A stretch of DNA of 64,000 nucleotides, taken from Liolophura sinensis. Its lineage: Eukaryota > Mollusca > Polyplacophora > Chitonida > Chitonidae. Position 1 is the first letter of the stretch, and each line of letters starts with the position of its first letter. Shown here piece after piece: positions 1-64,000 of this stretch. The notes under the pieces were generated by a model. It saw only the letters and a list, made by a program, of their open reading frames with translations, made no database searches and was not told where the DNA came from. A program made the translations under genes and the position numbers. Where the stretch lies: positions 30,449,732 to 30,513,731 of the forward strand of contig NC_088304.1 of the NCBI RefSeq assembly GCF_032854445.1, in the 5' to 3' direction.

Positions 1-2744
1 CACTCCACCTTTACCTCCCTGGTGAAAGATCTTACCAGAGACTGCACCTCAGACTTGGAAAAAGTGAGGTATGCAGACTTTTAAATCAGTCATCTGTTTG
101 CACCAGATAGAGTAATTACTAATGTTTTACAGTGAGGTTGATTGCATTTTATTTGTATGCATAATGTAAACAATTTTAAAACAAGCAAAGAAAACATGTA
201 TTTTCAAATATTCCTGTCTAGACTCCAACTTGTCTTTCTTATGGTTGTTCTTATTTTAATTCGTCAGAGCGCTATTTCTGTGGATTACCCTCAAGGACTT
301 GAATAAGTTGGACATGAAAGAAACCGTCCACCCAGATTCGCCAATGGGATTGCTGCGAGGCATTAAATGCGGAACTGAGAGTTACCATGACTTATTCAAA
401 CGGCTGTGCAGGTTTGTCATCTTTTGTCAGGTTTATCTGTCTTAATTCCATAGTCTGTCGGCGAATTTTGGCCTCGCGGCTAATCTTTCGTTTGCAAAGT
501 CACTGAATCATTAGCCCAAAGCTAGTTGGGACGCTACAATAACGTAGCACCCAGCTAGGTCCACACGGGCCTATTTCACTAAAATTAACAGCTTGAACCG
601 ACCTTATATTTGGTATGCTTTAGTTATTCTATTTATTTATTTGTTTTACGCCGTACTCAAAAATATTTGACTTATACGACGACGGCCTGCATTATGGTGG
701 GGGGAAACCCGACAGAGCACAGGGAAACACACCTTAGTCATTCTATCCGTACTGGTATAGATATGTCAAACCATCTTTTAACAGTAATCCAACCGTTTAA
801 AATTTTAAATCGAGCATATGGTCACCTATTGTCACAGCTAGCCTTGGGTTATGAAATTCTGGACTTGCCAGCTCATGGTGTTCATTGTTTACACCCTTTT
901 ATCGATATTGTCGCCGTACGACTTCGTGGTAAATCATAACTCGAAATTGTGATGTTAGATATCGGGGTGCGATTCCACACGCCGATTTGAACATTTAAAC
1001 TTCAATATGACACGCAGCTTGTAGCCCCCCAAGTTTTGCCACATTTGTCAAAACTAATATTTGTTATAGATGTATGTTCCCTGTTCAACTCACGCGACAC
1101 AAAAATCAGCGTTTATGTCACATTTAAGCTTTGAGGAGTGGGTCTCACTTGTTTTATGAGGCCAAATCTCTAATTTGAATATGAATTTTACACTTTTAAG
1201 GAGAGAGCTGAGTTTGCGCAATAAGCCCTGATATCAGATTGAATGCAAAGTTTTCATCAGCTAGAAGGCACGAGGTGACCAATGAAAGTAAATATGTTTC
1301 TCTATCTGTCAGCGAGAAACATTTATACATTGTTTATTATTAGTTCATAAATATTGAACAATTCATTTGCCTTCTTTTCAGTTACGCCGGGTTGTTCTGT
1401 GAGATCATTCAGGGATATTCCAAAGGAGCGGGATACAAGCCTGGGATGCGCATGGATAGCCCAAGATTCCGGAATTGCTGGACAGCTGTCTGCATTGATG
1501 GGTGTTGGCAGTTTATCAACTCTAACTGGGGTGCCAGACATGTCAAAGGACACCTGAAGAGCGATCTGGACGATCCGTCCGAACTGCATTATAAATGTGA
1601 TGAGTTCTACTTTGTGACTGATCCCGAAAATCATATTTACCAGCACTTTCCTGACGATCCAAAATGGCAACTTTTGGAATGTCCAATATCCATGGCGGAT
1701 TTCATCAATCTTCCCGTGGTTAAATCCCCGTTTTTCTCGTTAGGACTTCAGTTTGCAACACACTACGATTCGTTGCTTGAAACGCGCAATGGTGCCGTCG
1801 AAATAGAATTAGTGGCCGTGAAACTGACAGAATTTGGTCACCTTCTAGACCCAAAGGACAAAACCGAAAACCGGAAGTCTGCAGAAGGTCGTGTGTTTGT
1901 TCGCCAAATTGGTCAGAGAGTAATTTTCACTGTTGCACCACCCTATGTAGGAAGGTTTTACTTCACTGTCTACGCTAAAGAGGACTGGGTCTCTGAATCC
2001 CTCCAAAGTGCCTGCTCCTTCCAGATCCGATGCACGGCGAGAGACAGGGTAAGGCAAGCACACTATCCAAAAGTGCCTTCGTTCGGGCCGATGCCTAGCA
2101 TTGAAGCCTATGGAATATTGCCGAAATCCCATTCAGATCCCTTTGTACAATTTACTGGGGAAGATTTGTTCATCGAGTTTGCCTTAACGAGAAACTTAAA
2201 AGTGTCCGGCATGTTGGAGTACTATTTTCCCGGGCAATCGGAGCGCCACGAGGACTGCAAGAGAGGTGTATTTTTACATTACAAGAGCAAAGACGATGTG
2301 GTGTTTTGCATACGCTGTCCAAAAGTTGGAATGTACGTGTTTTCCATATTTGGTGGTGATAACAACGAAACCAATGGTGCCGATGACAACAGCAGGACAA
2401 ACGAGTGCCTATTTAAATATCTCATAGAAGCTAAGACAGCTTCCAAGCTACAGACAGGCCTCCCAAGGGCTTGTCACCGCTGGCACGAGTGTCGCCTTAT
2501 CTCGCCGTTTCACGGGACATTGTCACGTGACAACAAGATCATGTTTCGACTCCTGGCGCCGTTGGCGTTAGACATTGCTGTTATGATAGCAGATGTGTGG
2601 TTTCACTTGAAAAAGAACAAAGACGATGTGTGGGAAGGGCATGTGTACACAGGAAAAACCAGCAATACAAAAGTAAAAGTTTATGCCAAGTTACAGAAAG
2701 ACAGGTCACGCTTCTCTCCCCTGGTGGAGTTTATTGTCTCTTGA
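1..2744 (+). CDS. KY/hillarin-type transglutaminase-like protein, 3' part of gene, probable pseudoenzyme
   Basis: Three exons are visible: 1-68 (continuing from the left), 268-411 and 1382-2744, with GT-AG junctions and matching phase 2 at both joins. They encode the last 524 residues, ending at TGA 2742-2744. Family marks are EKVRALFLWIT across the first junction, then YHDLFKRLC, GYSKGAGYKPG, CWTAV and NWGA, the order seen in the transglutaminase-like core of kyphoscoliosis peptidase (KY) and hillarin. About 350 residues follow, rich in beta-type hydrophobic alternation, as in the Ig-like repeats C-terminal to KY domains. KY-family proteins act at the cytoskeleton and muscle Z-disc; that role here is inferred only. 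Against the usual Cys-Glu-Gly-Tyr, Asn-His-Ala-Trp and Asp-x-Thr-Trp motifs, this protein has Thr-Glu-Ser-Tyr, Arg-Asn-Cys-Trp and Asn-Ser-Asn-Trp, so Cys, His and Asp all look lost. The reading frame is otherwise intact, so it is not an obvious pseudogene. Confidence 0.8.
627..731 (-). repeat. SINE-A copy, truncated (3' part)
   Basis: Contains TTTACGCCGTACTC, a diverged ATATTTGACTTATACGACG and GGAAACCCGACAGAGC, the inverted tail half of the family. It lies in the intron before the third KY-like exon, antisense to that gene. Confidence 0.8.
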
Positions 2745-11892: not shown

Positions 11893-14800
11893 TTATACCT
11901 TAGAACTGTCCAACTCTTCGTCCAAAGGTCCCGACCGAGCACGAGATCCGTTTACATTGTTCAGGGACACCTGTGAAGGCTCCACATCACGTTTGGCATC
12001 CAATTTTTTGGAATCATATACCGTGGTATTGCCGTCGTTCACCTCTGGGTTAAATGTCAAATCCTCATCGTAGGCGTCGTTCATGTATCCAACATCTGAC
12101 GTGGGCTGAAAATAGGATCCACGAATATTCGAATTATCTACCCGTTCGTGAATTTGATCTCCGTTAACGGTGGTCCTATGTTTGCGTCGCTGGAAACAAA
12201 GTTTTAGCTGCTTGCGTTTCCACACCAAAGCGACGACGACAATAATGGCGATGAGGATGATAACGACCGCTATGGCTGTATCCCGCTCAACAGTCCCCGG
12301 AGCCAATGCTGCTGACAAAGTCATCGTGGTGCACAGCTGTGTAGTGGACGGTCCGTAGTTAAGCTGACCAGTAATACAGGCGTTATAACTGTGATCAAGC
12401 TGCAAGTCCGATAACACGTGAGACCGCTGATCGGGTTGTAAAGTTGTCTTTATCACTGCAGATGGGCGCAGAGAGTCCGTGTACTCTAGACTCAGATATT
12501 GAATGTAGACTTGCCCTGGACCAACGACCGACCACTCGAGAATCAATGTCTCGTTGTCTCTTCTGAAAGTCAAGTTCTCGATGCCAACTGATTTGTTATT
12601 CCTTTGCTTAATGCAAGGAGTTTCATAGAGTTTCGCATCCCGACACACTGCATCGGTTGTCGTTCTCGTGGACAGCCTGGGTTGCACGCAAATGCTGTAT
12701 TGATGCCCGCAGAGAAGATCGAACAAGACAACTGATCGGTTACTGGCAGGAATGAGGCGTTGTTGAACCATGGCGTCCGAGACGTCTTTGGACGTCAAAC
12801 GAAAATGATCGATGTAGCCAGCCCCCGGTCCTGATACAGACCATTCTAGCGTCACACTGTCATTGTTACTATCTAGGGAGAAACGCCACGTTGAAATCGC
12901 CAAGTCCTTCTCACAGTGTGCTGTTGTTGGTGTTGAATCTGATGATTTTATTGTTTCAGAGATGGAATTCAAAGCACATCTGGCTAAAGAGTAACAAGTC
13001 ACAAGATAGAAATTTAGTTCCGGAGGGAACTGACAGCGAGCGCCGTCCAGCCTATTAACCATGGAACTTCCTCTCAAAGAAGCCCCTTCACAATCACACA
13101 TTAAGGGATTGCCAGTCAAATACAGCTTTTGCAACTTTGTCTTTGATAAAAGCTCCGAGGCTTTGTTCAAGGAGGCAATCTGGTTCAAACGAAGGTCCAG
13201 TTCGCTCACACCTCCAAAGCTGTCTGGAGATATCATTGTTAGCCTGTTGCCCATTAAATTTAGGTGAAGGAGTCGGAATGTTGATGCATCTGATTTAGGC
13301 ATTAGGGAGTTAAATATCTCTAGCTTGTTGTGACTAAGATCTAAGATTTGAACTCTACCCAGACAGGCATTTGGAAAAATATCAACAATAGCGTTCCGCG
13401 AAAGATTCAATGAGTGAACCAAAGAAGACTCGCAAGGATTCCATTCTCGCGATGATCCATCATTTGAAACCTTCAGGGGAAATATGGTTATACGTTCCAA
13501 GGAGTTGTCTGAAAGATCCAAAAGCTCGACAGAGGTTTCATTTGAGAATACCAATGGAAGCCTGACCCGGTTTCTGCTAAAACGAAGCAGTTGAAATGCC
13601 GCTTCCTGCGAGGCATGAATGATCACATTTTCTATCTGGTTCTGACTCGCATCCAAACGGCCATTCGTGATTTTTTCCTGATTAAAGACAACGTTGACCT
13701 CTTGAAGATCATTGCCTGAGACGTCAACATTTACAACGGATCCTGTGATTATTACTAGCTCATCACTTTTTCCGAATGTCCTCAAACGGTTGCTGGAGAC
13801 GTCAATGTGTCCTGGTAACATAGCTCCGTCAAAGTCAGTGGTTCCGGTCAAAGAACAATTTCTAAAGCTCACCTGGAAGAGATTTACGAACCCTTTGGTA
13901 ATGTTTTGCGTTAGTGCTGGTAACTTATTGTAAGACAAATCCAGTTTACGTAAATGGTAGAATACGGGAATTCGTTGTAGAAGATCTGATATTGTCTCTG
14001 AGGAGAGATCATTATGAGATAAGTTCATTCCGCGCAGCTGTATTCCTAGGCCGAAGATAACACTTTTGTCGATTCGACTAATCATGTTTTGTTGGAGATA
14101 CACATATTTGAGCCGAGGTGAGTTTGCCAACACATCACGTGGTATTTCCGTCAGCTTGTTATTATCCAAATACAACCGAGTCAGAGTTTTCAAATTCTTG
14201 AAAGCTCCAGCCTGTAAGCTTACTATACTGTTGTTACTGGAATGAATTGTCTTTATTTTCGGCCAATATTTAGACACACGCGTCAAAAGTGTCTCGATGT
14301 TACTTCTACCATCGTCAGAGACGTTCTCGTTATTGCTTAAAGATAAATATTCCAGCTTTTCCAGTCTCCGAAATGCGCCAGGATTAACCATTCCCAGGTG
14401 ATTGCCATTCAGATCCAGGATACGCAATGCCGTTGTGCTGTTGAAGAAATCGACGGGGATATCCGAGAGTTTATTTCCCGAGGCGTACAAGCCGGTCAGC
14501 ATGGCTAAATTGGAGAACAACTTGTCCGGAAAACTGGCAATCCTGTTATTACTGAGGAACACGAACTTCAAATTCGTCGTATTTTGAAACAATTCTGAGG
14601 GTAAACTATCGATGTTGTTGTCCTGCAAATATAATTTTTGGAGACTCTGCAGCTCAGAAAAGAGAGAACTGTCCAGCTGTTTTAACGCGTTTCCGTTCAA
14701 ATTCAGCGTTTGTAATTTGATAAGCCCAGAAAATGATCCAGATTCAACAAACGAAATGTTATTCCATGACAAATGCAAGCTTTCCAGTTTAACCAGACTT

Positions 14801-15267
14801 GCAAAGTCACCGCTTTTAAGTGTCGACATTCCGTTTTGAAAGAAAACCAATTTTTTCAGTTTGACAAGAGGAGATAGGGCGCAACTGGGTACCGTTGTCA
14901 ACTCGAAGTTATTCGTAAATTCAACGGAATTCAGTTCAGATGCTAGCCCGGCAAAATCTGTGCACCCAAAAGAAGACGTTCGTGTAGAGCCTATGATCAA
15001 GTTTGTAACACGTATACCTTTGAAAGCATCCTTTGCGAAAGAGACACGCTGGGGACTGGAGACATAGAGCCGGTGGTATGACACATTCGATGGTAGAAAC
15101 GCGATTAGATTCTTGTCCAGATTTAAGCACATAATGTCGGTGCCGTTTTGTTCCGAGCACTCGCAGAGTGGGTTTAATGGACACTGTTGGCCACGGGCAC
15201 CATAGGGTAAGGCGGCTAATGTGGTCAAGATGACCAGACCGAGAAGCATGTAGACATTTGCCCCCAT
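11893..15267 (-). CDS. Leucine-rich-repeat receptor with two FN3-like domains, single membrane span, intronless
   Basis: This is one uninterrupted frame of 1124 residues. Residues 1-26 form a signal peptide with a hydrophobic core. A Cys-rich LRR N-cap (CPLNPLCEC) follows, then more than twenty leucine-rich repeats to about residue 715 (consensus LxxLxLxxNxL, many NxS/T sites), and a C-cap beginning NPLMCDC. Two related FN3-like segments start near residues 790 and 900; both carry LEWSV followed by GPG. The membrane helix is at about 996-1018 (IAVVIILIAIIVVVALVW), followed by basic KRKQLK and a tail of about 100 residues. The tail holds GYMNDAY, a pYxN-type (Grb2-SH2-like) motif, and TVYDSKK. 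There is no TIR domain, so it is not a canonical Toll receptor. The LRR-FN3-TM order fits neuronal adhesion or invertebrate recognition receptors; ligand and role are unknown. The ATG at 15267 directly precedes the signal peptide. Confidence 0.88.
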   Translation of the reverse strand: MGANVYMLLGLVILTTLAALPYGARGQQCPLNPLCECSEQNGTDIMCLNLDKNLIAFLPSNVSYHRLYVSSPQRVSFAKDAFKGIRVTNLIIGSTRTSSFGCTDFAGLASELNSVEFTNNFELTTVPSCALSPLVKLKKLVFFQNGMSTLKSGDFASLVKLESLHLSWNNISFVESGSFSGLIKLQTLNLNGNALKQLDSSLFSELQSLQKLYLQDNNIDSLPSELFQNTTNLKFVFLSNNRIASFPDKLFSNLAMLTGLYASGNKLSDIPVDFFNSTTALRILDLNGNHLGMVNPGAFRRLEKLEYLSLSNNENVSDDGRSNIETLLTRVSKYWPKIKTIHSSNNSIVSLQAGAFKNLKTLTRLYLDNNKLTEIPRDVLANSPRLKYVYLQQNMISRIDKSVIFGLGIQLRGMNLSHNDLSSETISDLLQRIPVFYHLRKLDLSYNKLPALTQNITKGFVNLFQVSFRNCSLTGTTDFDGAMLPGHIDVSSNRLRTFGKSDELVIITGSVVNVDVSGNDLQEVNVVFNQEKITNGRLDASQNQIENVIIHASQEAAFQLLRFSRNRVRLPLVFSNETSVELLDLSDNSLERITIFPLKVSNDGSSREWNPCESSLVHSLNLSRNAIVDIFPNACLGRVQILDLSHNKLEIFNSLMPKSDASTFRLLHLNLMGNRLTMISPDSFGGVSELDLRLNQIASLNKASELLSKTKLQKLYLTGNPLMCDCEGASLRGSSMVNRLDGARCQFPPELNFYLVTCYSLARCALNSISETIKSSDSTPTTAHCEKDLAISTWRFSLDSNNDSVTLEWSVSGPGAGYIDHFRLTSKDVSDAMVQQRLIPASNRSVVLFDLLCGHQYSICVQPRLSTRTTTDAVCRDAKLYETPCIKQRNNKSVGIENLTFRRDNETLILEWSVVGPGQVYIQYLSLEYTDSLRPSAVIKTTLQPDQRSHVLSDLQLDHSYNACITGQLNYGPSTTQLCTTMTLSAALAPGTVERDTAIAVVIILIAIIVVVALVWKRKQLKLCFQRRKHRTTVNGDQIHERVDNSNIRGSYFQPTSDVGYMNDAYDEDLTFNPEVNDGNTTVYDSKKLDAKRDVEPSQVSLNNVNGSRARSGPLDEELDSSKV

Positions 15268-15780
15268 CTTGATCCGTCGTCTCTATTTCGACCGGTTCAT
15301 GTGTGAAGCAGTACTCTGCTCTGAACCACACTGAGCATATCACATATCATACCATGGTCACACCCAACATAAGACAGGAAGAACCTGACAGTACTTCATG
15401 TCGTATTTTATTCACCATAGTATACCAGTATAGGATCATCTTGATGCGTGGAGATAAACTACGCCTGGAAAGCCATTCAAGGCTTTACCACCATTCCAAT
15501 TGTTTGAATCTGCGTTTTGGCGTTTTTTAAGTGGGTGTCATGGCAACACGCGCAATGGGGAAGGGCGCTTCATTGTTGCCGTTCCAAAGTGTTTAAAATC
15601 ACATTCATTGTAAGCTTTCACCAGCCTGGGGCGTTACACATACCAGTGATTTTCAATGAACTGATTCACCCAACAGATACCCGACACACATTTGCATTCA
15701 CAGGGAATAATAGCAAGTCTTCTTCCACTAAACTGTACTCCGCGGCAGGTACCCATTCCTGACAAGTGAGCAAGTGTCGT

Positions 15781-33900: not shown

Positions 33901-36900
33901 CATTGTTTACAGATTTCTTTCTTTGATTGCTGCTTTACGCTGTACTCAAGAAGCATTATGGTGGGATGAAACCTGGCAGAGCCCGAGGGAAACCCACAAC
34001 CATCGGCAAGCTGCTGACAGACCTTCCCGCGTACAGCCAAAGAGGAAGCAAGAAGGAGATGGACTTGAACTCAAAGCGACTGCATTGGTCAGAGGGGAAT
34101 ATTGCACTAAGCGAACAAGTGAATCATTTGCCAATGGCAAACAGCTTCATTCCAGTATCATTCTGGAGCATGTGCTTCCAGGCTTCCACGGTTCCAACCA
34201 AAGCTGGTATGTGGTTGACTGTGCTCTCTATCAACGTAGTCTTACATGAAATACATGGTACGGTTGCTATCCATGAAAATGACATATGTCACGTGCAAAG
34301 TTCACCCATGTAACTTCTTAAAGGTCAATGGTTTACTAGTCGCACCTCTAGTTTCTTCCACGTATGAAATCCTGGTTGCTATAGTAAGAGATAAACTAAT
34401 GCCTCATCCTTTTCGCATGTAAAAAAGGAACTTATACTCATTTTTAATTTTATTTTGTAGTGACAACACTACATTGGTTGGGTTGGCCGATATAAAGGCT
34501 TCACAAAAAGTTTAATTTTATCTGTCTACACAGAATGCCTTCAGAATATGCTTGAATAAACACTTTGCAAACATGCGAAAAGGTTGAAGAATCACAGTAA
34601 CCATTCTTAAATTCAGCATTATTAATCAAATTAAATTAAAGACTAGCATAAACAAGACGATCAGTGAGACAGACACACAGATGGGTTAAACCCTATGTTA
34701 CAGCCTATATCCTTCAATGATGCCAATGCCTGTCCCGCCTAAACATGCTATACTGTATGTCCACTTTCATTCATATTCATATCAATTTTCATTTTCATAT
34801 GCATTCATATTAAATTCTATAATAAAAACAGCTGATCTCTTCACCATGTTTTATGATTTGACACTTACATTCATATCACATTCAATTATAGAAACAGCTG
34901 AGCCAGGCTTTGTTTCCAGCACGCACAATTCATATATCTGTAATAAAGTAAAAAGGGCCTTGTCATTGGGATATCTGAGCAAAAAGAATGTCTATAATTT
35001 ATGTATTTATTTATTTGATTGATGTTTTACGCCGTAATCAAGAATATTTCACTTATACGGTAGCGGCCAGCATTATGGGGAGAGGAAACCAAGCAGAGCT
35101 CGGAAGAAACCCACAACCATCTGCAGGTTGATGCCAGACCTTCCCACTTACAGCCCAGAGAGGAGGCCAGCATGAGCTGGACTTGAACTCACAGCAGTTT
35201 GTCTACAATACACAAAATATTATCTCAAATGCAGACTTCACACTTCATACCAAATGAATCAATGCAGCAGTAGAATGCATTCATTAAACTTGTAGTGTGA
35301 ATACTTCAGAAGAAATACAAGTTTTAGCGGTCTTTGTAAGGGTTGTCAAAGAAAACATTTCAATAGGGCATAACTGTAAAAGCCAATGTTGTTTTAAAAT
35401 CTATATCGAAGTTGAAAGCTGGATGAGCCTTCTCTTGCTACAAATATTTATACACACTCACAACAATTAGTATCTAAAATTCTCTCTTTCAATGCGGCTG
35501 TAATTGTTATTGCTTTTCTAAAGTACATGTAAGCCTTTACTTTTGTTTCATAACATGTTTGTGTCTTCTCGAATGTCAGACTTACCGGTATGTCTAATGC
35601 TTACCTTCTCATTATATTTGATGGCAACAACGTCCCCTGATGTCAGACAGGCAAAGTTCCGCAATGCGTTTTCCAGTCTGACAGAAGGTTAAGAATGTAC
35701 TGCATAAAGACAAAACAATTTCACCCCAAACTTCTATTTAACTGTCCCAAACCAGTGATTATATTAAGTTGTCAATGTATGTTGCAATATCAAATAAGAG
35801 TAGTTACAAATAAGCTTGTACTAAAACTTTTACTACACAAAATTAGTAGGACACTTACACTTAGTAGGAGACTTACACTTAGTGGGACATTTGCAATTAG
35901 TAGGACACATACACTTAGTAGGAGCCTTATATTGAGTAGGAGACTTACACTTAGTAGGACACTTACACTTAGTAGGAGCCTTATATTGAGTAGGAGACTT
36001 ACACTTAGTAGGACACTTACACTTAGTAGGAGCCTTATATTGAGTAGGAGACTTACACTTAGTAGGAGTCTAACACTTTATAGGAGCCTTATATTGAGTA
36101 GGAGATTTACACTTAGTAGGACACTTACACTTAGTAGGACACTTACACTTAGTAGGAGCCTTATATTGAGTAGGACACTTACACTTAGTAGGACACTTAC
36201 ACTTAGTAGGAGCCTTATATTGAGTAGGACACTTACACTTAGTAGGAGTCTAACACTTTATAGGAGCCTTATATTGAGTAGGAGATTTACACTTAGTAGG
36301 ACACTTACACTCTGTAGGACACTTACACCTAGTAGGACACTTACACTTATTAGGACACTTATTAGGACACTTATAATTCTTAATCAAAAGTGAAACAAAT
36401 GTTAAACAGAAGCCTCTCTCTTTGATATTTTCATTTACGGTTGGTAATTAATAAAAAAACAGGTGATCATTTTTATGCTTAAAAACAGCAAACTTGATGG
36501 TTAAGCGATCTTCATTTCCATTCACATGCCGAATGCTCTAGATATCACTCAGTTATACGTTAGAGGAATTTCAACCATGTGTGTTTGTATACATGTATAC
36601 CAAATATGTATACATGAACATTATTAAACATTATTTAACAACCACTTAAGGTACAGCAGATCTGGGATGAAAGCAGAGTTACACATTCTGTGGAAATCTA
36701 TAACTGATGTGCTACAAGGTGAGTGCTAACACACAGGATACACAGCTTTAGGGTTGGTGATGTCCAAGAAGTCAACTGACTGAGGCTGGAATTTGGCAAA
36801 TGTTGCCACGGACAACGACACATTTTCCACCTGGACCAAACCACCTTCTTCCAGCATTAGGTTCTGCATCATCTGTAATCAGTAAAACGCAGCAATGCGT

Positions 36901-45100: not shown

Positions 45101-48100
45101 TTCTTCTTCCAGTTGAACATCACATAAGTGGTCAAGCGACCAAATGAACTGCCGTGAACAAACCAGCACAAATTGTCAAACTGAAATCCATATTGAAATC
45201 CATATTCCCTCAGAATGTTATTAACCAATCATTTTAAACTTCTCTTAACCAGATACATGTACCATGCTTCTAGCTGTTTTGATGGCAAAAAAAAAAATAG
45301 TTAACAGAGCAAATGAGTAATTTACATGGTCTTACATGAAGTTTGTAGTCTAGTCTGAGATCACCGATGTTCCTAGTCTGTTCTGAAATCACCAATGTTC
45401 CTAGTCTATTCTGAGATCACTGATGTTCCTAGTCTAGCCTGAGATCAAAGATGTTCAGAGTTTTCATTTAGAATTGGAGAAGGAGGTCAGAGTTCAAAAG
45501 TAGGCGGCTGAAATGAAAGTAATTATGTTAGTGTTAATTATGTTATTAATCACAGTTAGTACTGATTTAAATGTTAAGAATATTCAAAGTAGGCAGTTGG
45601 GGGGATGGCAGTAGATAGCTGTCTGCAACCTGCTACTTGCCCTTTTTGAACACCTTGATGTTCCTAGTGTGGTCTGAAATCACTGATGTTCCTAGCCTGG
45701 TTTAAGATCACTGATGTTTCTGGTCTGTTCTGAGATCACCGATGTTCTTAGTCTGGTCTGAGATCACCGATGACCCTAGTCTAGTCTGAGATCACCGATG
45801 TTCTTAGTCTGGTCTGAGATCACCGATGCTCTTAGTCTGGTCTGAGATCACCGATGACCCTAGTCTAGTCTGAGATCACCGATGCCCATAGTGTAGTCTG
45901 AGATCACCGATGACCCTATTCTGGTCTGAGATCACCGATGTTCTTAGTCTGGCCTGAGATCACCGATGACCCTTGTCTGGTCTGAGTTCCCCAATGTCCC
46001 TAGTCTGGTCAGAGATCACCGATGACCCTTGTCTGGTCTGAGATCACTGATGACCCTTGTCTGGTCTGAGATCACCGATGTCCCTGGTCTGGTCTGAGAT
46101 CACCGATGACCCTAGTCTGGTCTTAGATCACTGATGTTCTTAGTCTGGCCTGAGATCACCGATGTTCTTAGTCTGGTTTGAGATCACCGATGACCCTAGT
46201 CTGGTCTGAGATCACCATTGACCCTTGTCTGGTCTGAGATCCCCGATGACCCTAGTCTGGTCTGAGATCACCGATGACCCTTGTCTGGTCTGAGATCACC
46301 GATGTCCCTAGTCTGGTCTGAGATCACCGATGACCCTAGTCTGGTCTGAGATCACCGATGTTCTTAGTCTGGTCTGAGATCACCGATTTTCTTAGTCTGG
46401 TTTGAGATCACCGATGACCCTAGTCTGGTCTGAGATCACCGATGACCCTAGTCTAGTCTGAGATCACCGATGTTCTTAGTCTGGTCTGAGATCACCGATG
46501 CTCTTAGTCTGGTCTGAGATTACCGATGACCCTAGTCTAGTCTGAGATCACCGATGTCCATAGTGTAGTCTGAGATCACCGATGACCCTAGTCTGGTCTG
46601 AGATCACCGTTGACCCTTGTCTGGTCTGAGATCCCTGATGACCCTAGTCTGGTCTGAGATCACCGATGACCCTTGTCTGGTCTGAGATCACCGATGACCC
46701 TTGTCTGGTCTGAGATCACCGATGTCCCTAGTCTGGTCTGAGATCACCAATGTTCTTAGTCTGGTCTGAGATCACCGATGTCCCTAGTCTGGTCTGAGAT
46801 CACCGATGTTCTTAGTCTGGTCTGAGATCACCGATGTCCCTAGTCTGGTCTGAGATCACCGATGTTCTTAGTCTGGTCTGAGATCACCGATGTTCTTAGT
46901 CTGGTCTGAGATCACTGATGTGCCTAGTCTGGTCTGAGATCACCGATGTCCCTAGCCTGGTCTGAGATCACCGATGACCCTAGTCTGGTCTGAGATCACC
47001 GATGTTCTTAATCTGGCCTGAGATCACTGATGACCCTTGTCTGGTCTGAGATCCCCGATGTCCCTAGTCTGGTCTGAGATCACCAATGACCCTTGTCTGG
47101 TCTGAGATCACCAATGACCCTTGTCTGGTCTGAGATCACCGATGTGATGTGCCTAGTCTGGTCTTAGATCACTGATGTTCTTAGTCTGGTCTGAGATCAC
47201 TGATGTTCTTAGTCTGGTCTGAGATCACTGATGTCCCTACATCACATTAGCGAGAAAGCACATCGGTTATTTGCCAGTGGCTGGTGGATTATCCAGGCAC
47301 TCAGGTTTCCTCCACCTGAATGGAAATTAAATTGACTTGCCATCAGCTTTTGCGTTCATTTAGTGAAATTATTCTTCAGTCACTGAAGTCATCCTGTTCA
47401 GCAATATTTTTTGCTGTACATTGTCCTTCAAAAGAACTTGCATATAGCAAATAGCAGGACATTGTACCTGAGGTCTTGTGTGATGTCATGTCTTGTATGA
47501 TGTCATGCCTTGTATGACATCATGTCTTGTATGACGTCAGGTCTTGTATGACGTCATGTCTTGTATGATATCATGTCTTGTATGATGTCATGTCTTGTAG
47601 GATGTCATGCCTTGTATGAGATTATGTCTTGTTGCATCACATACATGTAGGAATGTTGAAGTTGGCTAAACTGTTATTATGATGTGAACCCACTGACCTC
47701 GGATTGGAACGTTATAAAACAAAATGTTTCTGTGTTTTAATGTCTCGCACACCGAGGTCGGTGTCTGGGAGTGAAATCTGAAAATGTAGTAACAAAAGTG
47801 GTATCTGAGTGAAATATCACTTTTAAATATCACATCAGTGACGGAAATCCTGACATTTCACGCTTTATAAATAAATGTTTGGTTTTTCAGAGAGTGCTGG
47901 TATTTGTTGGATTTGATGTGGATGGCTTGTGCGCTGTTAAGATTTTGCAGGTAAAAACAGACTTTACATTTATCATTTTTCAGACATTTATCTTCCATCT
48001 TATAGCTACATTGCCAGGTCTTATGCTGGCCTCCTCACCCGTTGTTCATGGAAAGGTCTTCCAGCAACCTGCGGTTGGTGTGGGTTTCCCACGGGCTCTG

Positions 48101-57100: not shown

Positions 57101-60100
57101 TTTTTTCCCACCATGGTAAGAAGCATGTGTTTGTGTTTTGGTGTTTGTCTTGTAGGAGAAGTTGGGCAGAATGCAACAATGTACAAATGTAGCAGGTTTA
57201 AAAGTGCAACACCAGTTATTATAACTCTGCTTCTGGGAGCATAAAGTTGTCAGTCATGATGACAAATCCTTCAATTGCATTAAGCAGATGTAGCGTTGTG
57301 AGATTTCCAGTTGTAAATCAGAAATAGTTTCCGGGATTTTATGTCAGTGTTTAAGGCAAACTATGCTGGGTGTTTCAGGCAGCACTGACAATGTTTGAAC
57401 TTGCCTGGAAAATGTCCAAAGACACCACAGATTTATTATGGTGAGTTCTGGTGATTTTTTTATTTATTTATTTGATTGGTGTTTTACGCCGTACTCAAGA
57501 ATATTTCACTTATACGATGGCGGCCAGCATTATGGTGGGAGGAGACCAGGCAGAACAGTTCTGTTGATTTAATTGTTGATATAAATTTCTGCCCCAGTAG
57601 TTTAGTATAGTTTTAGGTGCGCCTAAACTTCATTTGAGAAGTTGAAAACAACTTTTGTCACTGACTGTCTGACTTTGGTTAAAAGTTTTGTTGGGCTCAA
57701 ATGGTGCAAAGACTATGTTAATGCTTTTGGCTTATTAATAAAATAGGCTGATGAATGGGCTTATGAAACTGTCTCAGGATTCACTTTGACCAAATTTGGT
57801 GTGTTGTCAAACTTTTTGTTAAAAAAAGAAAGTTTGAGAAGAAAGTAAATTGTATGTGAAAGGTAATTCCCTGAAGTTAGCTTTGATAGCTTGAAGTCTG
57901 ATTGGTGTGTTGTAGGCTGGCAATTATTGGCCTCACAGATCAGTACATCCATTACAAGGTATGCAGAGATAAGTACATGGATGATGTCCTCACCTTACAG
58001 TCACACGTCTCCAGGCACAGTCACAGGTAAATGATTCACCTGGTTTTCTCACATGTTTCTCAGGTATTCATGTATTCTTCAGTTTCTCATGTATTCTAGC
58101 ATTGCCCGTGTTTATGTTTTGTGAATCAGGCATTCATATAGTCCTGAATTTCTCAGCCAGAGAATGAATGAATGAATGATTATGGCTTATCAGCAATATT
58201 TCAGCTATATTGTGACAAGATCCTACCCAGAGAAAGCCCACATTATGTCTGCAAGAAAATGCATGTTATAACTGCTGTTGCAGACAAGTTCTTCTGATGC
58301 CTACCGGCGCCGATAGCACAGTTGGTAGAGCGTCCGCTTTGGGGGGTGATGGGGGGGTAGATCCAGGGTTTATCCTGGGTCGAGTCGCACCTAAGACGTA
58401 AAAAAGGAAGTTGTAACTTCCTCGTGTGGTGTTCAGCATGAAGGGGATAGTGCATTGACTGGTTGATCAATATAATGGCTCTAACAGGGTGGCTTACTTG
58501 CCTTCGCTGAAGCGTCTCAGTGAAGCAGCACTAGATAAAAGACCGGTGGAAATCCTCCCTGCAACAGGAAGGCACATTACATGCACTCTAAGGATTCCTT
58601 TGTCGTCACATGTCTGAAAAATTGTTAAGTATGATGGTAAATGACATGAGTGTCTGAAAAATTTGAACGAAACGTAAGAGTACATGAATGATGCAGAAAA
58701 ACAAAGAGTTGCTTGAACAAAGAGTTAATCACATTATGTCACATGGTAAAGTTGGACTGTTTTACCTTTAGAGACAATAGAGTTCAAACTCTCTTATTGT
58801 TTTTTTTTTTTTTTTTGTGATATGCACCTTTGAACTCCTCGTGTGTTTGCAGGGGCGATGATGCAGACAATGTGATTTCTGTGGACTGTCTGCGAATTGT
58901 GTTTGAGGAAGAGCTAAGACTGACGCTGTATCGTCATTGGACACTCTATGACAGCATCTGTCACTCCATGAATTTCTCGTGTAAATTTAAAGTTTGGAGT
59001 TTACGGGGACAGAAGAGGTTACAGGAGTTCCTGGCAGAAATGGGGTAAGTTACACAGTTATAGTTTACGAGGACAGGAGAGGTTTCAGGAGTTCCTGACA
59101 GAAATGGGATAAGGCACACAGTTATAGTTTACGAGGACAGGAGAGGTTTCAGGAGTTCCTGACAGAAATGGGGTAAGGCACACAGTTATAGTTTACAAGG
59201 ACAGGAGAGGTTTCAGGAGTTTCTGACAGAAATGGGGTAAGGCACACAGTTATAGTTCACGAGGACAGGAGAGGTTTCAGGAGTTCCTGACAGAAATGGG
59301 GTAAGGCACACAGCTATAGTTTACGAGGACAGAAGAGGTTTCAGGAGTTTCTGGCAGAAATGGGGTAAGTTACACAGTTATAGTTTACGAGGACAGGAGA
59401 GGTTTCAGGAGTTCCTGACAGAAATGGGGTAAGGCACACAGTTATAGTTTACGAGGACAGAAGAGGTTACAGAGTTCTTGGCAGAAATGGGGTAAGGCAC
59501 ACAGTTACAGTTTACGAGGACAGAAGAGGTTACAGGAGTTCTTGGCAGAAATGGGGTAAGGCACACAGTTATTGTTTACGAGGACAGAAGAGGTTATAGG
59601 AGTTCCTGGCAGAAATGGGGTAAGGCATACAGTTATAGTTCACGAGGACAGAAGAGGTTACAGGAGTTCTTGGCAGAAATGGGGTAAGGCACACAGTTAT
59701 TGTTTACGAGGACAGGAGAGGTTTCAGGAGTTCCTGACAGAAATGGGATAAGGCAAACAGTTATAGTTCACGAGGACAGAAGAGGTTACAGGAGTTCTTG
59801 GCAGAAATGGGGTAAGGCACACAGTTATAGTTTACAAGGACAGAAGAGGTTTCAGGAGTTCCTGACAGAAATGGGGTAAGGCACACAGTTATAGTTTACG
59901 AGGACAGGAGAGGTTTCAGGAGTTCCTGACAGAAATGGGGTAAGGCACACAGTTATAGTTTACAAAAACAGAAGAGGTTTCAGGAGTTCCTGGCAGAAAT
60001 GGGGTAAGGCACACAGTTATAGTTTACAAGGAAAGGAGAGGTTACAGAGTTCCTGGCAGAAATGGGTTAAGGCACAGAGTTACAGTTTACAAGGAAAGGA

Positions 60101-63100
60101 GAGGTTACAGAGTTCCTGGCAGAAATGGGGTAAGGCACACAGTTATAGTTTACGAGGACAGGAGTGGTTACAGGAGTTCCTGGCAGAAATGGGGTAAGGC
60201 ACAGAGTTATAGTTTACGAGGAAAGGAGAGGTTACAGGAGTTCCTGGCAGAAATGGGTTAAGGCACAGAGTTATAGTTTACGAGGAAAGGAGAGGTTACA
60301 GGAGTTCCTGGCAGAAATGGGTTAAGGCACAGAGTTATAGTTTACGAGGAAAGGAGAGGTTACAGGAGTTCCTGGCAGAAATGGGTTAAGGCACACAGTT
60401 ATACTCACTTATTACATGTATCTGTCGGAATGTCAGTTTAGTGGATTTTACTAGGCCAGCATTAAATAACACGGTGCCAGGTTGTGAAATTGTTAAAAAA
60501 AAGTATGGATGTAGACATTTTTTTTTACCTGCTTTTACCATTAAAATTTGAAGGATTAAATTGAGTTCGTTATTGTTTTGATTTTGACAGAATGCCTCTG
60601 AACCAGTGTAAACAGAAGTTTGTATCTATGGATCCCTCCATTAAAGCTATGTTACTGTTTTGATTTTGACAGAATGCTTCTGAACCAGTGTAAACAGAAG
60701 TTTGTATCGATGGATCCCTCCATTAAAGCTATGTTACTGTTTTGATTTTGACAGAATGCCTCTGAACCAGTGTAAACAGAAGTTTGTATCGATGGATCCC
60801 TCCATTAAAGCTATGTTACTGTTTTGATTTTGACAGAATGCCTCTGAACCAGTGTAAACAGAAGTTTGTATCGATGGATCCCTCCATCAAAGCTATGTTA
60901 TTGTTTTGATTTTGACAGAATGCCTCTGAACCAGTGTAAACAGAAACTTGTATCTATGTATCCCTCCATTAAAGCTATGTTATTGTTTTGATTTTGACAG
61001 AATGCCTCTGAACCAGTGTAAACAGAAGTTTGTATCTATGGATCCCTCCATTAAAGCTATGTTATTGTTTTGATTTTGACAGAATGCCTCTGAACCAGTG
61101 TAAACAGAAGTTTGTATCTATGGATCCCTCCATCAAAGCTATGTTACTGTTTTGATTTTGACAGAATGCCTCTGAACCAGTGTAAACAGAAGTTTGTATC
61201 TATGGATCCCTCCATTAAAGCTATGTTACTGTTTTGATTTTGACAGAATGCCTCTGAACCAGTGTAAACAGAAGTTTGTATCTATGGATCCCTCCATCAA
61301 AGCTATGTTACTGTTTTGATTTTGACAGAATGCCTCTGAACCAGTGTAAACAGAAGTTTGTATCTATGGATCCCTCCTTTAAAGCTATGTTATTGTTTTG
61401 ATTTTGACAGAATGCCTCTGAACCAGTGTAAACAGAAGTTTGTATCTATGGATCCCTCCGTTAAAGCTATGTTATTGTTTTGATTTTGACAGAATGCCTC
61501 TGAACCAGTGTAAACAGAAGTTTGTATCGATGGATCCCTCCATTAAAGCTATGTTATTGTTTTGATTTTGACAGAATGCTTCTGAACCAGTGTAAACAGA
61601 AGTTTGTATCTATGTATCCCTCCATTAAAGCTATGTTACTGTTTTGATTTTGACAGAATGCCTCTGAACCAGTGTAAACAGAAGTTTGTATCTATGGATC
61701 CCTCCATTAAAGCTATGTTACTGTTTTGATTTTGACAGAATGCCTCTGAACCAGTGTAAACAGAAGTTTGTATCTATGGATCTCTCCATTAAAGCTATGT
61801 TATTGTTTTGATTTTGACAGAATGCCTCTGAACCAGTGTAAACAGAAGTTTGTATCTATGGATCCCTCCATTAAAGCTATGTTATTGTTTTGATTTTGAC
61901 AGAATGCCTCTGAACCAGTGTAAACAGAAGTTTGTATCTATGGATCCCTCCATCAAAGCTAACCTCAAAGAACTCATATTGGAACACACAGAGAAGTATG
62001 GGTGAGTTGTTTTCTTTTATTCAGAATGGATTTGTTAAACTAAAAACAAATTATTTCTAAAGTGAATATTTTTACAGCTACATGAATAAAGACAGATACA
62101 TAGACATCATCTACAGTGTGGTTTAGGTATGGTAGGATTGATAGATAGACACCAAATTGTCAAAAATCAAGCTTAAAGAAAAGTACTAAACAAAGTACAT
62201 GTGTCAACAGTTTCTGACATTTTTCTGGTTTGATTGACCCCACAACTTTTTAACTTGAAAACAGTGTGATTTTTCAGGTAATCTCTCCCTTGTCTGTTTT
62301 CTGTCTGTGGTAGTTTCAGTTCAGGATGATTCAGTTCATTATAATGTTATTTTTTTTCCCTGCAGGCTGGAAACTGCAGATGTTGTGGTGCCATCCTTCT
62401 TTGCTCAGTATGGCTACAGAAATAAACTTAGTGCTACAGATGTGGCCCATGCCTGCGTGGCAGCCCTGGAATCAGTGGTAAGTGCTGATTATGTTCAGTA
62501 ATCATACATTTTATTTCTTTTATTGGGGTTCTATGTTGTAATCAAGGAGAAACGCACACTTGTACTGGGGATTATTTTTGGTGTAGGTAGACATAACATC
62601 TGCCATGTACATGCAGGTCACTGACAAATCACCTGATACACATCAGGGGGCCTCCATGGCTCAGATGGTTAGTGCACTAGCACAGCACAATGACTCAGGA
62701 ATATCTCACCTAGGTGACTGCTGTGAGTTCATGCTCAACCTGAGAACTTCAACCTCTCTGGTTGTACGTGGGAAGGTCTTACCGGAACCTGAGCATTGTC
62801 ATGGGTTTCCTCTGGACTCGCCCGGTTCCTCTCGCTATTACACTGACCACCGTTGTATAAGTAAAATATTCTTGAGTGTGGTGTAAAACTCAAATACATA
62901 AAAATCAGACATCAAAAAGCCCAGTTGTCTGCTTGTAGTGAGACAGACACATTAGACAACCAAGCCAACTGGTAAGCCTTCTTATAGCTTGTAAATATTA
63001 TGTTGTAGATTCCAATGTTGTATGTTTTTCTCTGCACTGGTGCGAGTGTAATTTAGTCTTAAAAATCAATCTGATAACTTTCTTTTTATAAGGAAAGAGG

Positions 63101-63148: not shown

Positions 63149-63240
63149 GTAAGAAATTAAATCTTACTTTTAAGTACTATTAGCTGTGCAAAAAGTTCAA
63201 GAAAAGAGAGTTGACATGCCTTTGGGTCTAAGGCTAACAG

Positions 63241-63311
63241 AAAATTTACGGAGAAGCCAGAATTGACCAAGGAACAGCTGAAGACAGTGGTCACTCAAAT
63301 CTTTACATATG
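63241..63311 (+). other. CDC45: Candidate CDC45 exon 14 (tentative)
   Basis: It is preceded by an AG at 63239-63240 and followed by GT at 63312. It joins exon 13 in phase 2 without a stop and reads ELTKEQLKTVVTQ, which resembles the ELAKKQLRATQQ region expected next in CDC45. It would end in phase 1. A second, diverged lookalike at about 63570-63630 (LELVKKKLKALVTQV, then CLC) aligns slightly better to the family but has an in-frame TAG just upstream and a phase mismatch. One of the two is probably a duplicated remnant. Confidence 0.45.
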
Positions 63312-63337: not shown

Positions 63338-63473
63338 GCTGTACGTGGGAAGGTCTGACAGCAACCTGTGGATGGTCGTGGGTTTTCCTCCCACCATTAT
63401 ACTGGCTGCTGTCGTATAAGTGAAATATTCTTGAGTACGGTGTAAAACACAAATCAGATTAATAAATCAAATC
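63338..63473 (+). repeat. SINE-A copy after the candidate exon 14 (sense)
   Basis: GGCTGTACGTGGGAAGGTCT to GTACGGTGTAAAACACAAAT. Confidence 0.82.
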
Positions 63474-63599
63474 CAGCTGTTTTGTCTAGGACATTTGTGT
63501 AGGACTTTTGTGTAGGACTTCAGTCAAGTGTTTACATGACTTGTTGCCTAGGACTTACTTTGAAAATACTTAGAAAAGTTTAGAGCTCGTCAAGAAGAA

Positions 63600-64000
63600 A
63601 CTGAAGGCCTTGGTCACCCAAGTGCTTATATGTCTTTGTCAAGGATATTACTCAAGTGGGAATGTGACTGTTTTCCTAGGATATCACCCAAGTCCTTACA
63701 TGTGTATTTGCCTAGGATATCACCCAAGTCTTTGCTTGTGTATTTGCCTAGGATATCACTCAAGTGTTTATAAGTGTATTCATCTAGAATATCCCCCAAG
63801 ACTTCATATGTGTATTTGTCTAGGATATCACTCAGATGTTTATATGTGTATTTGCCTAGGATATCACCCATGTGTTTATATGTATTTTTGTCTAGGATAT
63901 CACCCGAGTGTTTACATGTGTATTTGCCTAGGGTATCACCCAAGTGTTTGCATGTGTATTTGCCCATGATATCACCCATGTCTTTACATTTGCCTAGGGT
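63600..64000 (+). repeat. 36-bp minisatellite at the right edge, CDC45 3' introns
   Basis: Units of 36 bp, core CCTAGGATATCACCCAAGTG then TTTATATGTGTATTTG, at least ten copies, continuing past the window. Each unit contains a pyrimidine-to-AG stretch (TTTGCCTAG). The array starts inside the exon-14-like remnant near 63600, so it may have grown from another exon-intron junction. The long open frames on both strands here are by-products of a unit length divisible by three. Confidence 0.85.

What the first reader, a model, noticed from the sequence alone, without database searches (positions are those of the whole stretch)
58998..61960. CDC45 intron 10 is built from tandem copies of its own two splice junctions
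The left array (about 22 units, 64 bp) copies exon 10 end plus donor. The right array (17 units, 82 bp) copies acceptor plus exon 11 start. Together they fill nearly the whole intron of an essential gene. I know of no general description of paired donor-side and acceptor-side minisatellites flanking one intron. The spliceosome must choose among roughly 20 donors and 17 acceptors, with only the outermost pair coding. This could be a natural test of splice-site proximity rules, a source of regulated CDC45 dosage through nonproductive splicing, or an example of intron growth by junction duplication.
Basis: partly seen in the sequence, partly recalled or inferred. Interest (0 to 1): 0.92.

Follow-up and report, generated by a model that had tools for sequence, protein, structure and literature searches.

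The report
Intron built from repeated splice junctions
In a chiton's CDC45 gene one intron has grown about fourteen-fold by copying its own two ends over and over, and the same kind of copying sits beside roughly one in twenty sampled exons of two other gene families, so splicing must routinely pick the right outer site among many look-alikes.

Summary
Observation confirmed. The window is from the chiton Liolophura sinensis (assembly published as L. japonica, PacBio HiFi). CDC45 intron 10 (59045-61902, 2858 bp) is 94% tandem array. The left array (22 units of 64 bp) repeats the last 47 nt of exon 10 plus 17 nt with the donor. The right array (17 units of 82 bp) repeats 22 nt of intron end plus the first 59 nt of exon 11. 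16 of 22 donors keep GT; all 17 acceptors are identical. Of 272 donor-acceptor pairs only the outermost reads through without a stop, and NCBI's protein has that junction. Exon 14 also ends a decayed acceptor-side array.

It is not peculiar to CDC45: of 156 kinesin and MCM exon matches read in the same genome, 10 carry arrays of their own junction by inspection, 8 of these by a strict test, on seven contigs.

Best reading: minisatellites arise all over this genome; those spanning a splice junction survive because the outermost sites still define the exon. Introns thereby grow by junction duplication. The human CBS gene has single examples of each kind; the pairing and the frequency look new within the searches made. 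Regulated CDC45 dosage is untested. No RNA evidence was available.

The parts
58853..59044 (+). CDC45 exon 10 (192 nt); its last 47 nt are the exonic part of the left repeat unit
   Evidence: tblastn of NCBI CDC45 protein P0132, 65 of 65 residues identical over 58851-59045; splice sites
58998..60403 (+). left, donor-side array: 22 units of 64 bp (unit 1 is the functional junction); 16 of 22 donors keep GT
59045..59050 (+). functional donor GTAAGT (GGG|GTAAGT); 14 of the 15 other GT donors are GTAAGG, 1.2 bits weaker on a recalled weight matrix; unit 6 equals the real one
60404..60568 (+). 165 bp of unique intron between the arrays, the core of the ancestral intron
60569..61961 (+). right, acceptor-side array: 17 units of 82 bp; all 17 acceptors TTTTGATTTTGACAG|AATG are identical
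61903..62001 (+). CDC45 exon 11 (99 nt, functional copy); its acceptor is the last of the 17
59046..59048 (+). in-frame TAA met as soon as donor 1 is passed over
   Evidence: the open frame ends at 59045; pair enumeration
63538..63624 (+). decayed copy of the start of exon 14, with an acceptor-like site, inside intron 13; in-frame stop; 15 of 24 exonic residues identical (18 of 29 with the intronic side)
63614..64000 (+). 36-bp acceptor-side array (17.9 copies, 74% matches) that continues past the window to window-extended position 64237 and ends at the acceptor of exon 14 (first exon base 64236)
   Evidence: with flank L002

Best explanation
The two arrays are minisatellites born independently by tandem duplication of a segment that straddled a splice junction: 47+17 nt at the donor and 22+59 nt at the acceptor of a short (about 205 bp) intron. 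Later unequal exchange or slippage amplified them to 22 and 17 units and lengthened the intron to 2858 bp. The coding sequence was untouched because the first donor still joins the full exon 10 and the last acceptor still opens the full exon 11. Splicing is inferred to join this outermost pair, because cross-exon (exon) definition favours the donor nearest the exon's own acceptor and the acceptor nearest the exon's own donor (exons of 192 and 99 nt), with first-come preference helping at the donor. Internal sites are near-silent; when used they give stop-containing RNAs. The same process acts across this genome, whose introns are rich in minisatellites: those spanning a junction are tolerated. 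Shown: anatomy, frame consequences, recurrence in other genes. Inferred: the birth mechanism, splice choice, neutrality.
For: Anatomy and unit limits. 271 of 272 donor-acceptor pairs contain a stop; the open one is 59045/61903. NCBI CDC45 P0132 (564 aa) has exactly that junction. Different units, periods and divergence (91.6% and 97.0% identity) point to separate origins. Recurrence: of 130 kinesin exon matches (132 found; the other two lie in L034, where TRF finds no array) and 26 of 26 MCM exon matches, 10 carry junction-derived arrays by inspection (6 donor-side, 4 acceptor-side); 8 of the 10 pass a 32-nt junction test with 0 copies in about 250 kb of other loci. Around 30 kinesin exons 19 arrays lie in 90,498 bp, so about 3.5 junction-spanning ones are expected in 312 junctions; they are not depleted. 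First-donor preference with two consensus donors in human cells (PMC6783452 section 7). The distal copy is preferred in the human CBS junction duplication (PMC2630376, passage).
Against: No RNA was examined; the NCBI model may have chosen this junction by homology. The same human library found no order preference for tandem acceptors, so choosing the last of 17 identical acceptors is not predicted by that rule and rests on exon definition alone. No good branch point for the last acceptor was seen by eye. Junction-spanning arrays are if anything about 3-fold above the background rate (9 with at least 2.5 copies: ratio 3.0, P 0.011; 8 strict: ratio 2.7, P 0.026), which plain neutrality does not require.
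Confidence: 0.72

Rival explanations
1. Selected regulatory device: the arrays tune CDC45 protein level by nonproductive splicing and nonsense-mediated decay, array length acting as a dosage control.
For: All 16 internal acceptors are intact and every non-outermost pair yields a stop. CDC45 is a limiting replication factor (recalled).
Against: 6 of 22 donors have lost GT, including the first competitor after the real one. The right array is homogeneous throughout, so intact acceptors need no selection (1 of 22 intronic against 9 of 60 remaining columns vary). Similar arrays occur beside kinesin and MCM exons.
Confidence: 0.08
2. Mutational bias: splice junctions are hot spots for tandem duplication in this lineage, beyond the general minisatellite rate.
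For: 9 junction-spanning arrays with at least 2.5 copies in 312 junctions against 16 other arrays in 90,498 bp: rate ratio 3.0, P 0.011; with the 8 strict cases 2.7, P 0.026. Three junctions in one gene, CDC45.
Against: The background rate rests on few arrays near kinesin exons only; classification was by eye; P values ignore that exons of one gene are not independent; CDC45 was chosen because it was striking.
Confidence: 0.3
3. Assembly artefact: collapse or expansion of the arrays in the assembler.
For: HiFi coverage is only 14x and heterozygosity 1.2% (PMC11068029, passages).
Against: HiFi reads of about 8.3 kb on average can span 3 kb. 18 of 22 and 14 of 17 units are distinct. Similar arrays occur at other places of the genome. 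Exact unit number could still be off.
Confidence: 0.04

Closest known systems
Human CBS 31-bp VNTR, c.1444_1467+7(16_21)
   Same: A polymorphic minisatellite whose unit is 24 nt of exon end plus 7 nt of intron including the donor, in 16 to 21 copies (name and range from PMC2630376, passages; the split 24+7 is read off the name). It is the same kind as the left array.
   Different: Single gene, donor side only; no partner array at the other end of the intron is mentioned in the passages seen.
Human CBS c.844_845ins68
   Same: Duplication of an intron 7/exon 8 junction in which the distal copy is strongly preferred, so the upstream copy is removed (PMC2630376, passage). Same kind as one step of the right array. 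The passage itself says 'splice donor', although an intron 7/exon 8 junction is an acceptor.
   Different: One extra copy, not an array.
Internal tandem repeats at exon-intron boundaries in primate segmental duplications
   Same: Minisatellite expansions at exon-intron boundaries that change splicing; 27 intron modifications reported (PMC2812944, passages).
   Different: On average 30-bp units in 4 copies, in recent paralogs, discussed as making new introns or elongating exons. Here an old intron lengthens and the protein is unchanged.
[quoted passage not shown]
   Same: Tandem duplication at splice motifs (PMC2891723, passages).
   Different: There a new intron arises inside an exon; here an existing intron grows. 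The position looks old: an unnamed relative's predicted protein (P0008) ends at LAEMG and another (P0011) departs from CDC45 after LAEMG.

Membership tests
Minisatellite / VNTR | Head-to-tail units of about 10-100 bp in many copies | tested here: met
   64 bp x 22 and 82 bp x 17
Minisatellite / VNTR | Copy number varies between alleles | not testable with these tools
   One haplotype is held; a single genomic match to the 3-kb query
Junction-spanning VNTR of the CBS 31-bp kind | Unit holds exon end plus donor | tested here: met
   47 exonic + 17 intronic nt; 16 of 22 keep GT
Junction-spanning VNTR of the CBS 31-bp kind | Alternative donors used in RNA | not testable with these tools
   No transcript data were held
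Acceptor-junction duplication of the CBS 844ins68 kind | Duplicated intron end plus exon start, distal copy coding | tested here: met
   Only acceptor 61903 gives an open frame; P0132 has that junction
Intron gain by tandem duplication | Intron absent before the duplication | tested here: not met
   Indirect: P0008 ends and P0011 departs at LAEMG, and a predicted deer CDC45 (P0006) lacks exactly the 33 residues of exon 11, so both junction positions look old; a unique 165-bp core lies between the arrays. Other species' gene structures were not seen.
Mobile element as source of the arrays | Units match an interspersed element | tested here: not met
   The 3-kb query has one match in 609 Mb (the tool skips simple repeats and very common words); within the window long matches are CDC45 junction copies only

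The most novel reading that the evidence does not exclude
In this chiton, tandem amplification of splice junctions is a genome-wide and junction-biased mode of intron growth. About one exon in twenty carries a minisatellite made of its own donor or acceptor, and splicing ignores tens of near-perfect copies because exon definition reads from the exon outwards. The genome would then be a large natural experiment on splice-site choice, and the junction bias would point to a link between splicing or transcription and DNA duplication.
Probability: 0.35. Interest if true: 0.8.

Novelty: new variant of a known kind. Interest (0 to 1): 0.66.

Why it matters
Splice-site choice rules have been studied with engineered pairs of sites. 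Here are natural pre-mRNAs with up to 16 GT donors and 17 identical acceptors around one intron, in an essential gene, and similar arrays beside about 5% of sampled exons. If the outermost pair is used, exon definition operates strongly in a mollusc, and the acceptor side (last of 17 identical sites) is a clean test that site strength cannot explain. It also gives a simple route for intron lengthening that leaves proteins unchanged, and a practical warning: gene predictors and read mappers may mishandle such introns.

Tried and rejected
Considered and set aside: recursive splicing (exon 11 does not begin with GT, so no donor is regenerated; sequence); a known RNA family (0 Rfam matches at gathering scores); intron gain (see membership test); mobile-element origin.

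Led nowhere: six literature searches for a general description of junction arrays listed no paper that, by its title and abstract start, describes paired or genome-wide ones; the held library lacks most subscription journals, so the claim of novelty is limited to those searches. One search (aimed at CBS ins68) gave no better source. The classic duplicated-splice-site experiments of the 1980s are recalled only and were not read.

Dropped from the count: arrays that touch or adjoin exon matches but are not junction copies, L033, L068, L125; L115 is the far end of the L022 array. L054 and L070 count by inspection but fail the strict 32-nt test, as does the CDC45 exon 14 array. The strict test was run on the ten candidates and CDC45, not on all 156; its comparison loci were read on one strand, without L001-L003, without L115 for L022, and without L063 and L067 for L136, which share that region or gene. 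An automatic strict test on the first 90 kinesin loci gave 4 of 140 scored junctions, with 1 of 700 in the null; that one pair of loci (L061, L030) overlaps in the genome. The first rate comparison took 17 background arrays; three of the 19 are junction arrays, so 16 is right. The branch point of the last acceptor was looked for by eye without a clear answer.
Full report
WHAT IS THERE. Intron 10 of CDC45 (59045-61902, 2858 bp) consists of two arrays with 165 bp of unique sequence between them. The left array has 22 units of 64 bp: the last 47 nt of exon 10 plus the first 17 nt of the intron. The right array has 17 units of 82 bp: the last 22 nt of the intron, 59 nt of exon 11 and one extra base. 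Unit 1 on the left and unit 17 on the right are the functional copies. Arrays make up 2693 of 2858 bp; taking away the extra units leaves an intron of about 205 bp.

GENE AND SPECIES. The joined exons match Pfam CDC45 (PF02724, E 1.5e-64) and solved CDC45 structures. The genome paper (PMC11068029, passages) lists scaffold_6 with 36,638,032 bp and a genome of about 609 Mb; the window's assembly has 609,464,459 bp, and the contig as held there has 36,632,598 bp. P0132 aligns to the window from exon 1 (42179) to exon 13 (ending 63149), its junction residues LAEMG|MPLNQ being those of donor 59045 and acceptor 61903 (exon 2, at 47888, shows and not in the filtered list). NCBI taxonomy places L. sinensis in Chitonidae.

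CODING CONSEQUENCES. I enumerated 16 GT donors by 17 acceptors: 271 of 272 combinations contain a stop within exons 10-13, and one, the outermost, is open. The frame meets TAA directly behind donor 1. On a weight matrix with recalled vertebrate frequencies the real donor scores 9.48 and 14 of the 15 other GT donors 8.28, a difference of one base at +6; unit 6 equals the real donor. The acceptors are identical from the polypyrimidine stretch into the exon, so strength cannot explain a choice among them.

UNIT HISTORY. The arrays differ in divergence: mean pairwise identity 91.6% on the left and 97.0% on the right, with no strong fall with distance. Donor position +1 is among the variable columns (16 G, 2 A, 4 T), so internal donors decay. 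The right array varies at few positions anywhere, so its 17 intact acceptors are no sign of selection.

A THIRD ARRAY IN THE SAME GENE. The 36-bp array near the window's end continues into the flank and stops at the acceptor of exon 14: TTTGTCTAG|GACAAACACAG, first exon base 64236 in window-extended coordinates. A decayed copy of the start of exon 14 stands at its beginning (63538-63624; 15 of 24 exonic residues identical, with a stop), and a weaker one at 63230-63310. The unit shares the acceptor but only part of exon 14, and fails the strict 32-nt junction test (0 copies). I read it as an older acceptor-side array.

IS IT ONLY CDC45? A search of the whole genome with the kinesin motor family gave 132 matches, mostly single exons, some spanning an intron (122 of 207 first candidates were scored, so more may exist). 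I read 130 of them with at least 450 nt on each side; the other two lie in L034, where TRF finds no array. Thirteen had a tandem array within 15 nt of the match. Nine are copies of the exon's own junction by inspection: L009, L117, L136 on the acceptor side; L022, L045, L054, L070, L074, L131 on the donor side. L033, L068, L125 are not; L115 is the other end of L022's array. Of 26 MCM exon matches, all read with 220 nt flanks, one has an acceptor-side junction array (L161). Together 10 of 156 by inspection, on seven contigs. With a uniform test (32 nt centred on the junction, at least 70% identity, adjacent flank) 8 of these 10 pass, with 2 to 20 extra copies each and none in about 250 kb of other loci, read on one strand; 8 of 156 is 5.1% (exact interval 2.2 to 9.9%). 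The test was applied to the ten candidates, not blindly to all 156; an automatic version on the first 90 loci found 4 of 140 scored junctions.

ARE JUNCTIONS FAVOURED OR AVOIDED? Around 30 kinesin exons, 19 arrays lie in 90,498 bp, mean period 54; three of them are junction arrays (L009, L022, L117). If arrays were born uniformly, about 3.0 to 3.5 of 312 junctions should be spanned; 9 arrays with at least 2.5 copies were seen (ratio 3.0, P 0.011), or 8 strict cases (ratio 2.7, P 0.026). So in this sample junction arrays are not depleted, as they would be if they usually spoiled splicing, and may be favoured. The background estimate is small and local, and exons of one gene are not independent.

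HOW IT PROBABLY WORKS. A junction-spanning duplication leaves the first donor and the last acceptor attached to complete exons, so the protein is unchanged if these are used. In a human reporter library the first of two consensus donors was preferred, and no order preference was found for acceptors (PMC6783452 section 7). Exon definition accounts for both sides: the outermost donor is nearest the acceptor of the 192-nt exon 10, and the outermost acceptor nearest the donor of the 99-nt exon 11. In human CBS a duplicated intron 7/exon 8 junction is spliced at the distal copy (PMC2630376, passage). Splice choice in the chiton is an inference; no RNA was available.

WHAT IS NEW. Single junction minisatellites are known: the CBS 31-bp VNTR is c.1444_1467+7(16_21), that is 24 exonic and 7 intronic nt. 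Tandem repeats at exon-intron boundaries occur in human segmental duplications (PMC2812944, passages). New here, within the searches made, are the paired donor-side and acceptor-side arrays of one intron, and the frequency of such arrays in one genome. In the first chiton genome paper the words intron and tandem do not occur in the main text; in the second each occurs once, and the passages shown do not treat such arrays.

Noticed in passing
L022 (G000:C11:27411483-27414650) and L115: The 73-bp donor-side array of a kinesin gene lies between two copies of the 3' part of an exon, about 1.7 kb apart and nearly identical by eye, so either could be the spliced one.
   Followed up: partly
45657-47239: 28-bp minisatellite of about 56 copies in intron 1 of CDC45; 13 merged arrays cover 6941 of 26214 bp of the gene.
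   Followed up: no
for example 57455-57500, 63429-63471: Dispersed SINE-like element with core GGTGTTTTACGCCGTACTCAAGAATATTTCAC; 17 matches with up to 9 mismatches in the window.
   Followed up: no
58305-58345: tRNA-like stretch (AGCACAGTTGGTAGAGCGTCCGCTTTGG) that looks like a tRNA-derived SINE head; recognised by eye only.
   Followed up: no
11896-15282 (-): Long open frame of 1129 codons, an LRR plus fibronectin III protein; closest other protein is 72% identical on an 8-kb contig (P0013).
   Followed up: partly
1344-2741 (+): Open frame with KY-like Ig domains (PF23265).
   Followed up: no
35843-36361: 18-bp array (28.8 copies) inside a 250-codon open frame.
   Followed up: no
P0006 (Cervus CDC45): This predicted deer protein lacks the 33 residues that correspond to exon 11 here, an exon whose skipping keeps the frame (99 nt).
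   Followed up: partly
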